A stretch of DNA of 42,451 nt from the NCBI GenBank assembly GCA_026387575.1, contig JAPLLK010000086.1, positions 1 through 42,451 on the forward strand, given 5' to 3'. This document shows positions 20,369 through 24,237 of this stretch, piece after piece; position 1 is the stretch's first letter; each line of letters begins with the position of its first letter. The translations under genes and the position numbers were made by a program. The notes below the pieces were generated by a model. The model did no database searches and had not been told where the DNA came from. It saw only the letters and a list, made by a program, of their open reading frames with translations. Origin of the DNA: Nitrospirota bacterium (GTDB taxonomy: Bacteria > Nitrospirota > Thermodesulfovibrionia > Thermodesulfovibrionales > UBA1546).

Positions 20369-22183
20369 TTATGGGGTAAACGCAGGATGCTGCTGAATCG
20401 GAACTGTTTCAAAGAAAGAGCCTTGATATTCTTTTTCCCTGTCTTTCCTGTATGTTGCAAAAAAGGCATTCCACTTTTCCCCAGTCACATACTGCAATAT
20501 ATCGTCCGGCAGATGGATTAGAAGTTTACGAGCATCTTTAAACCCAAGATGGTCGGCTATTTTGAAAAAATTGATGCGCATTAGCATGTCTTTGGTGTAT
20601 GGACGCTTAGCGTCAGTGAACGTAATAGCCCGAAGCAAATCTTGAGCATAGGAGCTATTAAGTATTGCCACAGCGATGAGCGCTTCTGATATGTCATCAA
20701 AGCCTAAGAAATAACAGGTATCATCCAACATCATCGGCTTATTATTAAAAGGCATGACAAGTGAGAAAGATGGTTTTTTATATAACCCTGAAATTGCCAC
20801 TTTATACGGTTTAAAGGAATATTCTCCTATCCCAAAAATAGAAAATAACGGTTTTCCTTTGTAAATACTTGATCTTCTCTCTGAGAAAAACTGTATATTC
20901 TTGGATAGGTATCCGTAAATGTGCGGAAATTTCTCTGAAATATATTTTGTATCTTCCCCAATCTTCTTCTGAGTTAAAATAGTGTATTTTCTTGGTTTTG
21001 TAATCAAAGGAGACTGAATGTCAGAACTTTTCACTAAACCGTAAATTAAGTCATCTTCTAATATCAGTTCCTCATTGAAGCCATTGATAAATTTGCCATC
21101 CTCCATCTTAAGTTCTAGTATTTTAGAGCAATCATGTTTTATCCCTTGCCGCCAAATAAAAGGGCAGGTTCCATCGAAGTCTCTGCTGTTCTGATAAAGA
21201 GCAACATCAGATACAAATTTATGGCCAATCCAGCCAAACTCACTTTCAACTAAATTTGGCGAGTTGAGAAAAGATGCTTTACAGATATATTGAAGAGAGT
21301 TTCTTCCAAATCTGCATTTGAAAAGAGAGGCCTCTACAGATGCCTTGAAGTATGTCTTGGCATCAAATTTTAAAGCGGCCATATCATAAATGTCATAAGT
21401 CGTTTTTGGAAGGTCATATATCAAGTTCTTAATTACGGAATTCTTCGCCAGCATTGCCATATATCCGCTTTGCTTAGCAAATGAATTGAGCATCATTAAT
21501 ATGATATATTCCCCGATATCAAAGTTCCCTTTCCCTGTGATGGCGTCAAATCCATTGTGAGACTTAAAGTTGCTCTTCACAGGGAGATTGCTGGAATTCA
21601 GAGTACTCAATTCCGAATTAGTAACCCACGGTGGATTACCGAGAACAAGAACCTTTTCTTTCTCTGCGGCTTTTCCTATGCGTGAAAAATCAAATCCAAA
21701 AATGTCTTTGCAGTATAGGAAAATAGAAGGCTTGTTCAGGTGGGGATTTTCAATAAACAGTTCAAGTATAGCGAATTTTGTAAACCAACAATAAGGTTCA
21801 TAGATTTCCACACCATACACTTGTTTAAGTTTTGGAAACGCTTTAAGGGCTGACATGATAAATGAACCTTTGCCGAATGTTGGTTCTACGACAGTTTCAG
21901 GGATGAGGTTTTCTTTCAAAAGAATGTTGCATACCAAGTCGCTCAGAATGCTTGGTGTTTGAAAGTCGCCAAATTCTCTCCTTTCCAAGTCTTCAGAAAC
22001 GATGTGACATGGTTCGAGAAGTTCTAAGAAAAACAAGAAATCGTGCTCGCTCCCAAAGAAGTCATTGATTCCACAAAGATGCACAAGCAAATCGTCTGCG
22101 TCCTTGGAGGTTTGAATATTATGGAAACTGCTTCTTAAGGAATCAAGAGTCGATGGCTTTATATTTTGCAGGGCCTTTTTCAT
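20369..22183 (-). CDS. DNA adenine N6-methyltransferase of a type II R-M system
   Basis: A 604-residue DNA methyltransferase that should protect host DNA from the partner endonuclease. Motif X-like GDFQTP is at residues 72-77, the SAM-binding motif I EPTFGKGSF at 100-108, and the catalytic NPPW motif IV at 183-186; this order and the NPPW tetrapeptide indicate an adenine-N6 enzyme of the gamma type. The long C-terminal half likely forms the target recognition domain. The start codon overlaps the stop of the endonuclease gene by 4 bp (ATGA), so the genes are translationally coupled, endonuclease first. The recognition sequence cannot be predicted from here. Confidence 0.86.
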   Translation of the reverse strand: MKKALQNIKPSTLDSLRSSFHNIQTSKDADDLLVHLCGINDFFGSEHDFLFFLELLEPCHIVSEDLERREFGDFQTPSILSDLVCNILLKENLIPETVVEPTFGKGSFIMSALKAFPKLKQVYGVEIYEPYCWFTKFAILELFIENPHLNKPSIFLYCKDIFGFDFSRIGKAAEKEKVLVLGNPPWVTNSELSTLNSSNLPVKSNFKSHNGFDAITGKGNFDIGEYIILMMLNSFAKQSGYMAMLAKNSVIKNLIYDLPKTTYDIYDMAALKFDAKTYFKASVEASLFKCRFGRNSLQYICKASFLNSPNLVESEFGWIGHKFVSDVALYQNSRDFDGTCPFIWRQGIKHDCSKILELKMEDGKFINGFNEELILEDDLIYGLVKSSDIQSPLITKPRKYTILTQKKIGEDTKYISEKFPHIYGYLSKNIQFFSERRSSIYKGKPLFSIFGIGEYSFKPYKVAISGLYKKPSFSLVMPFNNKPMMLDDTCYFLGFDDISEALIAVAILNSSYAQDLLRAITFTDAKRPYTKDMLMRINFFKIADHLGFKDARKLLIHLPDDILQYVTGEKWNAFFATYRKDREKEYQGSFFETVPIQQHPAFTP

Positions 22184-22848
22184 ATCTTGTTTATTATGCG
22201 TACTATTCCGTCAACGCTTTCAGAGAGTTTGACAACGCGCCCATATTGTAATCGCCACTGTAGAGCATTAGAGATTGTCAGGTAGCCTTGTTCAGGTTTA
22301 TTGCGCAAAATTTCTTCGGCTAAATCGCGCATCATTATTTCATCTGCCGGAAGGTTCCTATCTGTGAGATATGCGATTATATCTTCAGAGTTTGCATTGT
22401 TGTCGAGCATTTGTCGGATTGTTTTTGTTATCTGGAAGTCTGCGGTTCTGTGCTTATGGATAAACGAGCAACTGACAAAGTTGAGGCGGGCAACCTTTTT
22501 AGTGGGGTCGTCGGTCTTCTCGTATACGAAAAGAAGTAAGTTATAGCCCAGACCATAAATTTTTTGTCTTGCATTTTTGAAGGGGCATGATGATTGAGGC
22601 TGTTCAATTGAGGTTACTTTGATATCGGTATTGATATCGCTGGATGGCATATCAATGCCGTTTGCGGAGGAACCTATTTCAGCGTCATAATTTTCATCAA
22701 GATAGTCCGAGAACTTGTGTTCTATAAACGTCCCAACTGCCTTTCCATCGGTTACGCCATACAAATCTTTGTTGTCAAATGTGGATTCCCTTTCACAAAA
22801 GGCCTTTGCTTCCTTAATTAGTTCATCAGTTGTCAGTTTCGGCTTCAT
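22180..22848 (-). CDS. Type II restriction endonuclease (PD-(D/E)xK-like)
   Basis: A 222-residue protein directly upstream of the methyltransferase. NGIDMPSS with Asp66 followed by TDIKVTS with Asp75-x-Lys77 matches a PD-(D/E)xK nuclease core, and GTFIEHKFSDYL supplies the upstream acidic helix. The C-terminal part (YLTISNALQWRLQYGRVVKL) may be a winged-helix DNA-binding segment. Overlap with the methyltransferase start, shared strand and enclosure by inverted repeats support the R-M assignment. GGAGAATAA before ATG 22848 is a good ribosome-binding site. The family is inferred from context and motif; specificity is unknown. Confidence 0.72.
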   Translation of the reverse strand: MKPKLTTDELIKEAKAFCERESTFDNKDLYGVTDGKAVGTFIEHKFSDYLDENYDAEIGSSANGIDMPSSDINTDIKVTSIEQPQSSCPFKNARQKIYGLGYNLLLFVYEKTDDPTKKVARLNFVSCSFIHKHRTADFQITKTIRQMLDNNANSEDIIAYLTDRNLPADEIMMRDLAEEILRNKPEQGYLTISNALQWRLQYGRVVKLSESVDGIVRIINKI

Positions 22849-22889
22849 TTATTCTCCTAAAGTTATAATTCTCAAGCATTGTATCCTTT

Positions 22890-22911
22890 TCGGCACGGCA
22901 TTGCAAATAAC
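22890..22911 (-). repeat. Right 22-bp inverted repeat of the R-M module
   Basis: TCGGCACGGCATTGCAAATA plus AC on the plus strand; its reverse complement matches 20341-20362 with two differences. It lies 41 bp upstream of the endonuclease start. Confidence 0.75.
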
Positions 22912-23061
22912 TTGTTCACATCCGCAATTAATTGCATATACACCGCCAAAATGGGGGGATAGACGCAATGCGGATATCCCAATTCGCTGCCATCACAAGA
23001 ATTCTATCAATCCCACTTTTTCTTGTCAATCACTAGTTTCCGGAGATATAATACATTTTAA

Positions 23062-23295
23062 ATGCGCATTATCATTCCGAAAAAAGAAATACAAAAAGAT
23101 AAGATAACAATTTCCGGTGAAAAGGCGCGGTATCTTATATCCGTGCTGAGGTGCGGCGCGGGAGATGAGCTTCAGGTCTTTAACGGCGAGGGAAGTTTTT
23201 ATAAATCTAAAGTTGAGAGCCTTGTTAATTCTCATAAAATAAAAGGTTTTATCTTCTGGGAAGAGAGGGGATTGCCTAAGTTCTGTGCATCCTGA
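23062..23295 (+). pseudogene. rsmE: Truncated rsmE (16S rRNA m3U1498 methyltransferase), N-terminal part only
   Basis: About 65 residues match the N-terminal PUA-like domain of RsmE: MRIIIPKKEI, then ISGEKARYLISVLRCGAGDE and VFNGEGSFYKSKVE. The protein then departs from the family and stops at 78 codons, against about 240 for a full enzyme. The SPOUT methyltransferase domain with its knot is missing, so no activity is expected. A TATAAT box lies 9 bp before the ATG. The break point lies just upstream of the split tRNA-Leu, so one rearrangement may explain both. Confidence 0.78.
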
Positions 23296-23336
23296 TATTT
23301 TCTGCACAAAATTGCTATATTCGGAATTAGCTGTGT

Positions 23337-23366
23337 TTGACCTGATGTCAAACAATCCTTTAAAAT
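23337..23366 (+). promoter_or_regulatory. Promoter of the nested tRNA-Leu locus
   Basis: TTGACC (23337-23342), an 18-bp spacer and TAAAAT (23361-23366) end 7 bp before the first base of the outer tRNA (23374). The -35 hexamer lies in a GTTTGAC/GTCAAAC hairpin (23335-23353). Placement exactly at the outer tRNA 5' end implies that the whole locus is transcribed from there. Confidence 0.6.
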
Positions 23367-23373
23367 CAATCAA

Positions 23374-23610
23374 GCGAGAGTGGCGGAACTGGTCTACGAC
23401 TCGTAGAGCAGACGCGTCCCGACTTAGTGGGCTGTTTTTAATTAGCAGATTAGGGCGTGTGGCGGAGTTGGCAGACGCGCCAGACTTAGGATCTGGTGGG
23501 GCAACCCATGGAGGTTCGAATCCTCTCACGCCCACCATTTGAGAGAAGATTAAAGATGAGTTAGTCGGGATGGGCAACCTGTAGGGGTTCAACTCCCCTC
23601 TCTCGCACCA
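23374..23610 (+). tRNA. Split outer tRNA-Leu interrupted in the anticodon loop by another tRNA-Leu
   Basis: The 5' half starts GCGAGAGTGGCGGAACTGGT at 23374 and runs to CCCGACTTAG (23418-23427). The 3' half starts TCGGGATGGGCAACC at 23565 and ends in CTCTCGC-A-CCA at 23610. Acceptor GCGAGAG/CTCTCGC pairs 7 of 7 and the anticodon stem CCCGA/TCGGG 5 of 5 across a 137-nt interruption that holds a complete tRNA-Leu. TTAG occurs at both edges of the interruption. The D-loop also has a 16-nt insertion (23394-23409). The remaining sequence looks like a class II tRNA-Leu with a long variable arm and encoded CCA. It may be a disrupted gene or a gene with an intron-like insert; as it stands it would not be read as a normal tRNA. 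Confidence 0.75.
23453..23537 (+). tRNA. tRNA-Leu (anticodon TAG), nested inside another tRNA-Leu
   Basis: A complete 85-nt class II tRNA: acceptor GGGCGTG pairs with CACGCCC, anticodon stem CCAGA/TCTGG encloses CTTAGGA, the variable arm is TGGGGCAACCCA, the T-arm has GGTTCGAATCC, and CCA is encoded. All identity features look normal. It has no promoter of its own close by and lies entirely within the outer tRNA-Leu. Confidence 0.96.
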
Positions 23611-23655
23611 TTATAAATAATTCCGGATAAATAGAGATTTATCTGAATCCTTTGT

Positions 23656-23661
23656 TATAAT
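23656..23661 (+). promoter_or_regulatory. TATAAT box 6 bp before the ATG at 23668
   Basis: A perfect hexamer followed by CTCCCT and ATG, with no Shine-Dalgarno sequence. A leaderless transcript is the simplest reading. Confidence 0.42.
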
Positions 23662-23667
23662 CTCCCT

Positions 23668-24237
23668 ATGGAAAGAAAAGTAACATATTTTGAAAAACCC
23701 GGAAAAGAAAACACATCCGCATGTCTTGAAGTTGTCAGGCAGGCGATAAAGGACAACTCATACAAACATCTTATAGTGGCAACCACAGGCGGAGATACAG
23801 GCATCTTATTTTCAGAGGCATTAAAAACATCTGCTGTTAATCTTGTTGTTGTAACGCATTCTGCGGGATACAAAGAAGCAAACACAATGGAAATACCAAA
23901 TGATGTCATAGAGGAAATAAAGGCAAACGGCGCAAAGATTTACACAGGAACAATGCTTACACATTCATTGGAAACAGCCTTTTCATCCAAATTCGGAGGG
24001 TTATATCCAACGCTCATTATCGCCCAGTCTCTAAGAAGGTTTGGAGAAGGGCCAAAGGTGTGCTGCGAGATTGTTATGATGGCTGTTGATGCAGGCCTTA
24101 TACCTGAAGGTGAGGAAGTCCTTGCTGTCGCAGGCACAGGCAGAGGCGCTGATACAGTGATGGTTATTAAATCTGCCGCATCAAAGCGGTTTCTTGACCT
24201 TAAGGCGCTTGAGATACTTGCAAAGCCGAGAGCTTAA
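23668..24237 (+). CDS. Pyruvate kinase alpha/beta (C-terminal) domain protein
   Basis: A 189-residue protein that corresponds only to the allosteric C-terminal domain of pyruvate kinase, without the catalytic barrel. The glycine-rich LIVATTGGDTGILFSEAL and GEEVLAVAGTGRGADTVMVI segments are the recognisable landmarks; the latter matches the phosphate-binding turn of PK_C proteins. Free-standing versions are common in anaerobes and archaea and have no established function; catalysis of the kinase reaction is not expected. It precedes pepA by 66 bp on the same strand. Confidence 0.8.
   Translation: MERKVTYFEKPGKENTSACLEVVRQAIKDNSYKHLIVATTGGDTGILFSEALKTSAVNLVVVTHSAGYKEANTMEIPNDVIEEIKANGAKIYTGTMLTHSLETAFSSKFGGLYPTLIIAQSLRRFGEGPKVCCEIVMMAVDAGLIPEGEEVLAVAGTGRGADTVMVIKSAASKRFLDLKALEILAKPRA

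What the first reader, a model, noticed from the sequence alone, without database searches (positions are those of the whole stretch)
23374..23610. A complete tRNA-Leu nested in the anticodon loop of a second, split tRNA-Leu
Seen: outer 5' half 23374-23427 and 3' half 23565-23610 keep perfect acceptor (7/7) and anticodon-stem (5/5) pairing although 137 nt separate them, and the insert contains an intact tRNA-Leu(TAG) at 23453-23537. TTAG flanks the insert on both sides. A promoter (TTGACC-18-TAAAAT) ends exactly 7 bp before the outer tRNA. Known: bacterial tRNA-Leu genes can carry group I introns in the anticodon loop, but these are longer and do not hold a tRNA; split tRNAs exist in some archaea. 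Inferred: processing of the inner tRNA by RNase P and the 3' endonuclease would free two outer halves that can still anneal as a split tRNA, or the outer gene is recently dead.
Basis: partly seen in the sequence, partly recalled or inferred. Interest (0 to 1): 0.85.

Follow-up and report, generated by a model that had tools for sequence, protein, structure and literature searches.

The report
A tRNA nested inside another tRNA
In these Nitrospirota-type bacteria the only working leucine tRNA for one codon family sits inside the split remains of the tRNA gene it replaced, apparently the scar of an old insertion into an essential gene, and the same double gene recurs in distant families.

Summary
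A complete tRNA-Leu(UAG) (23453-23537) lies in the anticodon loop of a second tRNA-Leu whose halves (23374-23427, 23565-23610) still pair 7/7 in the acceptor, 6/6 in the anticodon stem and 5/5 in the T-stem. It is not an assembly error: the arrangement, intact or eroded, recurs in four other genomes of the genus and in families f17, f19, f21 and f15 of the class. In f17 the unconstrained fold is a perfect double cloverleaf. The outer gene is the original: a sister genome has it uninterrupted, with the same promoter, downstream flank and UAG anticodon. Each genome has one UAG tRNA: the inner one where nested, the outer type where not. The outer is very unlikely to decode: its anticodon triplet is not conserved, its D-loop carries a 16-nt hairpin, and it is decayed in G003, G007, f15, f19 and f21. 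Best reading: a fossil of an insertion into the tRNA-Leu(UAG) anticodon loop by an element carrying a replacement tRNA (as in phage tRNA-dependent lysogeny), worn down to that tRNA. The nested allele probably entered this genus laterally from an f21-like lineage. Whether the relic's structure is under selection remains open.

The parts
23337..23366 (+). promoter of the original (outer) tRNA-Leu gene, TTGACC-18-TAAAAT, now driving the nested gene
   Evidence: same promoter before the uninterrupted gene in G001, G008, G009, G010, G012, G013
23374..23427 (+). outer tRNA-Leu, 5' half (acceptor strand, D-arm, 5' anticodon-stem strand, TTAG)
   Evidence: identical to the native gene of G001 at 1-19 and CAGACGCG; 7/7 acceptor pairing
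23393..23408 (+). 16-nt palindromic hairpin insert in the outer D-loop, TCTACGACTCGTAGAG
   Evidence: absent from native genes; shared with G005, G006, G007 and, diverged, with f21 G439 and G441 and f19 G377
23417..23422 (+). outer anticodon-stem strand TCCCGA, pairs with 23565-23570
   Evidence: same pair of arms in G005, G006, f17 G316, f19 G340 and G413, f21 G441; native genes have CNGGA/TCCNG
23428..23452 (+). 5' spacer between outer half and inner tRNA
   Evidence: pairs imperfectly with the 3' spacer in the predicted fold
23453..23537 (+). inner, complete tRNA-Leu(UAG) with encoded CCA: the only UAG tRNA of the genome
23538..23564 (+). 3' spacer
23565..23610 (+). outer tRNA-Leu, 3' half (anticodon-stem strand, variable arm, T-arm, acceptor strand, discriminator A, CCA)
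   Evidence: G006's copy is identical to the native G001 gene over 39 nt; the window's differs by one inserted base
23626..23643 (+). hairpin GATAAAT-AGAG-ATTTATC downstream, retained in G001, G005, G006 and G007; possible transcript end (no T-run)
   Evidence: not scored as a terminator

Best explanation
The outer gene is the original tRNA-Leu(UAG), interrupted in its anticodon loop by DNA that brought a complete tRNA-Leu(UAG) of another sequence type (acceptor GGGCG). The incoming tRNA took over and is now the only UAG tRNA. The disrupted gene was not restored, so its halves remain as relics that lend the promoter, leader and trailer of the new gene. The likeliest origin is an integrative element that targets the anticodon loop without rebuilding the tRNA and carries a same-isotype tRNA, as in phage tRNA-dependent lysogeny, later worn down to the tRNA and two short spacers. 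The nested allele is old in the f17/f19/f21 lineages. It probably reached part of this genus by lateral transfer, with recombination inside the homologous outer halves. The inner tRNA is presumably released by the ordinary 5' and 3' tRNA maturation enzymes. The remaining outer parts pair around it, which may keep the near-identical 5' relic from competing with the inner tRNA for folding. Shown: replacement, homology and synteny, recurrence, decay. Inferred: the element type, the transfer, processing, the insulating role.
For: Uninterrupted ortholog in G001 with the same promoter, downstream flank and UAG anticodon. Exactly one UAG tRNA in each of 14 genomes where it was found: inner type in G000, G003, G005, G006, G007; outer type in G001 and G008-G013. 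All other Leu isoacceptors are present in the window's genome. Outer decayed in G007 (3' half lost), G003 (5' half nearly gone), f15 G428, f19 G340 and G413, f21 G439 and G441. The same anticodon loop is an insertion site in the family: G011 and G008 carry a displaced 5' half 1.3-1.6 kb upstream of a rebuilt gene. Anticodon-loop attachment sites are common (2083 of 3919 mapped islands, PMC4383910). Non-rebuilding integration complemented by an element-borne same-isotype tRNA is demonstrated in phages (PMC10865867). Inner tRNA 95% identical to G439 of f21, and the D-loop hairpin plus GTCCCGA/TCGGGAT arms are shared with f19/f21. Shared downstream genes among f17, f19 and f21 nested loci.
Against: No integrase, intact element or attachment core has been found around any nested locus; viral collections gave no match. 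Simple site-specific insertion should leave the native CNGGA/TCCNG stem, but nested outers have TCCCGA/TCGGGA, so the outer stem changed before or after insertion, or came with the insert. Three genomes of the genus and f17 keep the outer halves almost perfect, more than a plain relic needs. The insulating effect in folding calculations is small, absent when both halves are present, and depends on the model.
Confidence: 0.62

Rival explanations
1. The outer RNA is a selected functional structure, not a decoding tRNA: a tRNA-shaped scaffold or leader that folds, protects or paces processing of the inner tRNA, kept by purifying selection.
For: The 5' module GCAGACGCGTCCCGAATATTTTATATTATA is nearly identical in f17 G316 and f19 G377 and close in f21 G441, although neighbouring proteins are 60-70% identical. 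In f17 the unconstrained fold is a perfect double cloverleaf. In the genus the outer 5' half shows 0-1 substitutions in 54 between G000, G005 and G006 while wider flanks differ by about 10%. Eroded copies in several lineages show a helix around the inner tRNA or a hairpin in the relic D-arm; the G428 hairpin has z = -5.0.
Against: The immediate downstream non-coding flank is equally conserved (0-4 of 63). Leader-trailer pairing is strong only in G000, G006, G340 and G413 and ordinary in G007, G439, G428 and G316. The outer is lost piece by piece in half of the lineages, and many relatives with a free-standing inner-type tRNA have no such module.
Confidence: 0.22
2. Plain relic: the outer halves do nothing and survive only because deletions between promoter and inner gene are rare or harmful.
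For: Repeated erosion at different ends in different lineages; no conserved anticodon.
Against: The 3' half has no such protection, yet is intact in G000, G005, G006, f17 and G340; conservation of the 5' module across families.
Confidence: 0.1
3. The outer halves, freed by maturation of the inner tRNA, anneal or are ligated into a functional split tRNA-Leu.
For: Perfect acceptor and anticodon-stem pairing; an RtcB RNA ligase is encoded in this genome; pairing of acceptor and anticodon stem is near certain in the model.
Against: Anticodon triplet not conserved; spacers would remain in the loop; D-loop carries a hairpin; the outer T-arm is not favoured in the predicted fold of G000 (pair probability 0.01); outer dispensable in half of the relatives; RtcB is equally present without nesting; all Leu isoacceptors are already covered.
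Confidence: 0.05
4. Assembly or binning error.
For: The genome is a 98-contig draft, and two near-identical tRNAs are a classic assembly trap.
Against: Same junctions in G005, G006 and G007, assembled separately, and homologous junctions in f17, f19 and f21.
Confidence: 0.01

Closest known systems
Phage tRNA-dependent lysogeny (Guerrero-Bustamante and Hatfull 2024, PMC10865867)
   Same: integration in a single-copy host tRNA gene without rebuilding it, rescued by an element-borne tRNA of the same isotype; one published case uses a tRNA-Leu (CAA)
   Different: here no prophage or integrase remains; the replacement tRNA sits 25-30 nt inside the split gene; the state is fixed and inherited across species
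Genomic islands in tRNA genes (Islander, PMC4383910)
   Same: anticodon loop as target; displaced tRNA fragment next to a working tRNA; true islands of this kind appear at the same gene in G011 and G008
   Different: islands restore the target from a fragment of itself; here both halves stay broken around a different, complete tRNA
Split and intron-containing tRNA genes of archaea (reviewed in PMC4390854)
   Same: tRNA gene interrupted in the anticodon loop with both halves able to pair
   Different: no splicing-endonuclease pathway is expected in bacteria; the insert holds a tRNA; the outer anticodon is not conserved
Group I introns in bacterial tRNA-Leu(UAA)
   Same: anticodon-loop interruption of a tRNA-Leu
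   Different: no group I intron matched; the insert is 137 nt and holds a tRNA

Membership tests
tRNA-Leu(UAG), inner gene | class II cloverleaf with UAG anticodon over the Rfam threshold | tested here: met
   59.4 bits against 29; ARAGORN
tRNA-Leu(UAG), inner gene | only UAG tRNA in the genome | tested here: met
   draft genome about 92% complete
tRNA-dependent lysogeny (as origin) | element inserted in a tRNA gene without rebuilding it | tested here: met
   both outer halves flank the insert and neither is completed
[quoted passage not shown]
   UAG in both inner and native gene
tRNA-dependent lysogeny (as origin) | tyrosine integrase and phage genes in the insert | tested here: not met
   insert is 137 nt; no element found at any nested locus, so this is not claimed as a member, only as the likely origin
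tRNA-dependent lysogeny (as origin) | short attP/attB common core of about 8-17 bp | tested here: inconclusive
   anticodon-loop junction seen, but the outer stem differs from native, so no core can be read
split tRNA | halves rejoin to a tRNA with a conserved anticodon | tested here: not met
   junction triplets differ among relatives
split tRNA | both halves transcribed and joined | not testable with these tools
   needs RNA data
group I intron tRNA-Leu | group I intron core in the insert | tested here: not met
   Rfam scan of 22800-24200 up to E = 1 lists only the tRNA

The most novel reading that the evidence does not exclude
The nested gene makes a selected double-cloverleaf precursor in which the old tRNA survives as a folding and processing scaffold for the tRNA that replaced it: a tRNA turned into a cis-acting chaperone of another tRNA, kept over family-level divergence (perfect in f17) and spreading laterally as a unit.
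Probability: 0.22. Interest if true: 0.85.

Novelty: new variant of a known kind. Interest (0 to 1): 0.66.

Why it matters
It is a gene architecture for which a search of the open literature library found no report: a complete tRNA inside the anticodon loop of another. It preserves in chromosomes the replacement of an essential single-copy tRNA by an incoming tRNA of the same isotype, a step so far shown in phages in the laboratory. It gives a natural series (intact, eroded, lost) for asking how displaced tRNA genes decay and whether a relic can be kept as a scaffold. It is also a trap for annotation: tRNA finders report only the inner gene.

Tried and rejected
Target-site duplication (TTAG repeats): not conserved in sisters. 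Group I intron: no Rfam match. Phage, plasmid or viral carrier of the inner tRNA or of the nested junction: only ordinary tRNA-Leu similarity in phages (best 76-83%) and plasmids, none in viral contigs. Other nested tRNA-Leu in the phylum by a double D-arm pattern: only the loci already known; three further hits (G281, G312, G411) were not opened: by their matched sequence two run into ordinary tRNA-Leu genes and one looks like chance. Intact element in G019: its inner-type tRNA lies about 4 kb from the genes that flank the native tRNA in a sister genome, but no native halves or integrase are there. Purifying selection on the outer within the genus: inconclusive, because the downstream flank is equally conserved. 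Insulation by the D-loop hairpin: 3-6-fold effect on inner folding in leader-only RNAs of three genomes, none in G006 and none with both halves present. A tree of the genus from one flanking gene did not resolve whether the G003 and G007 deletions are independent.

Full report
What is there. Window 23374-23610 holds two tRNA-Leu genes, one inside the other. The inner, 23453-23537, is a complete tRNA-Leu(TAG), the only one ARAGORN and Rfam report. The outer is split by 137 nt in its anticodon loop. Acceptor (7/7), anticodon stem TCCCGA/TCGGGA (6/6) and T-stem (5/5) remain, with discriminator A and encoded CCA. The promoter TTGACC-18-TAAAAT lies 7 nt upstream. The whole RNA folds with z = -4.5 against shuffles.

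The outer gene is the original. In G001, of the same genus, an uninterrupted GCGAGAG-type tRNA-Leu(TAG) has the same promoter and downstream flank. The same native gene with the same promoter is found in six of the genomes of the other genera of the family (G008-G013). The outer 3' half of G006 is identical to G001 over 39 nt, and the 5' half over its first 19 nt. Each genome in which a UAG tRNA was found has exactly one: inner type in G000, G003, G005, G006, G007; outer type in G001 and G008-G013. The window's genome also has tRNA-Leu UAA, CAA, CAG and GAG. The inner gene has therefore replaced the outer.

The arrangement is not a local accident. Within the genus the nested form is intact in G000, G005 and G006. 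In G007 the 3' half is reduced to TCCCCTCTCTCGCACCA. In G003 the 5' half is nearly gone and the 3' half is TTCCCCTCTCTCGC. Three of these are public MAGs: JAHILQ01, MNVK01 and DOHC01. In other families of the class, f17 G316 has a perfect nested pair without the D-loop hairpin. There the unconstrained minimum-free-energy fold is a double cloverleaf. f19 G340 and G413 keep the TCCCGA/TCGGGA arms but have lost the 5' acceptor strand. f21 G441 and G439 and f15 G428 keep other parts. f19 G377 has the 5' module in front of an intact native-type gene. f21 G374 has a 5' half of an inner-type gene 14 nt before an intact one.

History. The nested loci of f17, f19 and f21 share downstream genes, so the nested state is old there. 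In f1 only part of one genus has it. The f1 inner tRNA is 95% identical to that of f21 G439, and the D-loop hairpin and GTCCCGA arm are shared with f21 and f19. Lateral transfer into the genus, by recombination in the homologous outer halves, is the simplest reading; this is inference.

Mechanism of origin. The anticodon loop of this same gene is a real insertion site in the family: in G011 and G008 a displaced 5' half lies 1.3-1.6 kb upstream of a rebuilt gene. Anticodon-loop sites make up 2083 of 3919 mapped islands (PMC4383910). [quoted passage not shown] The nested locus looks like the fossil of such an event. Missing are an integrase, an intact element and a readable attachment core. The changed outer stem (TCCCGA/TCGGGA against native CNGGA/TCCNG) is not explained by simple insertion. 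In the genus it amounts to two paired changes and one added pair relative to CAGGA/TCCTG.

Is the outer functional? As a decoding tRNA, very unlikely. The junction reads CTTAG only in this genome, CTTGG in G005 and G006, CGTGG in G007, and has no anticodon in f17, f19 or f21. It is decayed in half of the lineages. RtcB is present with and without nesting. As a leader or scaffold it is possible. The 5' module is nearly identical between families whose neighbouring proteins are 60-70% identical. Relic D-arms have become hairpins of different sequence in at least three lineages, and the G428 hairpin has z = -5.0. In leader-only RNAs, removal of the hairpin lowers correct folding of the inner tRNA 3-6-fold in G000, G005 and G007, but not in G006 and not when both halves are present. 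Against it: the downstream flank is as conserved as the outer, and leader-trailer pairing is not generally above chance in the eroded copies.

Verdict. A real, recurrent and, as far as the searched literature shows, unreported architecture. The most likely explanation is ordinary in its parts: tRNA-gene insertion, replacement and decay. The open and interesting question is whether the relic is kept for a purpose.

Noticed in passing
G316:C96:4499-5803 (L177) and G340:C23:2962-4266 (L178): RtcB has an in-frame TGA exactly at the conserved metal-binding cysteine (GYDIN-U-GVR against GYDINCGVR in G000 and G441), in two families: probable selenocysteine RtcB. SelA/SelB and tRNA-Sec were not checked.
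   Followed up: partly
L074 (G006:C17), about 2.1 kb directly after the outer CCA: an insertion at the CCA end of the outer tRNA, with GCACCA repeated at its far end, in a sister genome; its ORFs look by eye like a carboxymuconolactone-decarboxylase-type protein and an HxlR-type regulator, with no integrase recognised
   Followed up: partly
23062-23295: a short ORF with only the PUA domain of an RNA methyltransferase (RsmE-like) lies directly upstream of the promoter: a truncated gene at the edge of the locus
   Followed up: partly
20369-22848, minus strand: two adjacent ORFs (604 and 222 aa) with no Pfam match; by eye the larger looks like a DNA methyltransferase (NPPW motif) and the pair like a restriction-modification system near the tRNA
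   Followed up: partly
L071 (G011) and L072 (G008): islands or their remnants that displaced the 5' half of tRNA-Leu(UAG) 1.3-1.6 kb upstream of a rebuilt gene; 5'-fragment islands are the rarer kind (159 of 3919 in PMC4383910)
   Followed up: partly
L169 (G374), about 100 nt upstream of the tRNA: a 5' half of a GGGCG-type tRNA-Leu whose D-arm has become a GCATG-AAC-CATGC hairpin, 14 nt before the intact gene: the same locus hit again by a similar event
   Followed up: no
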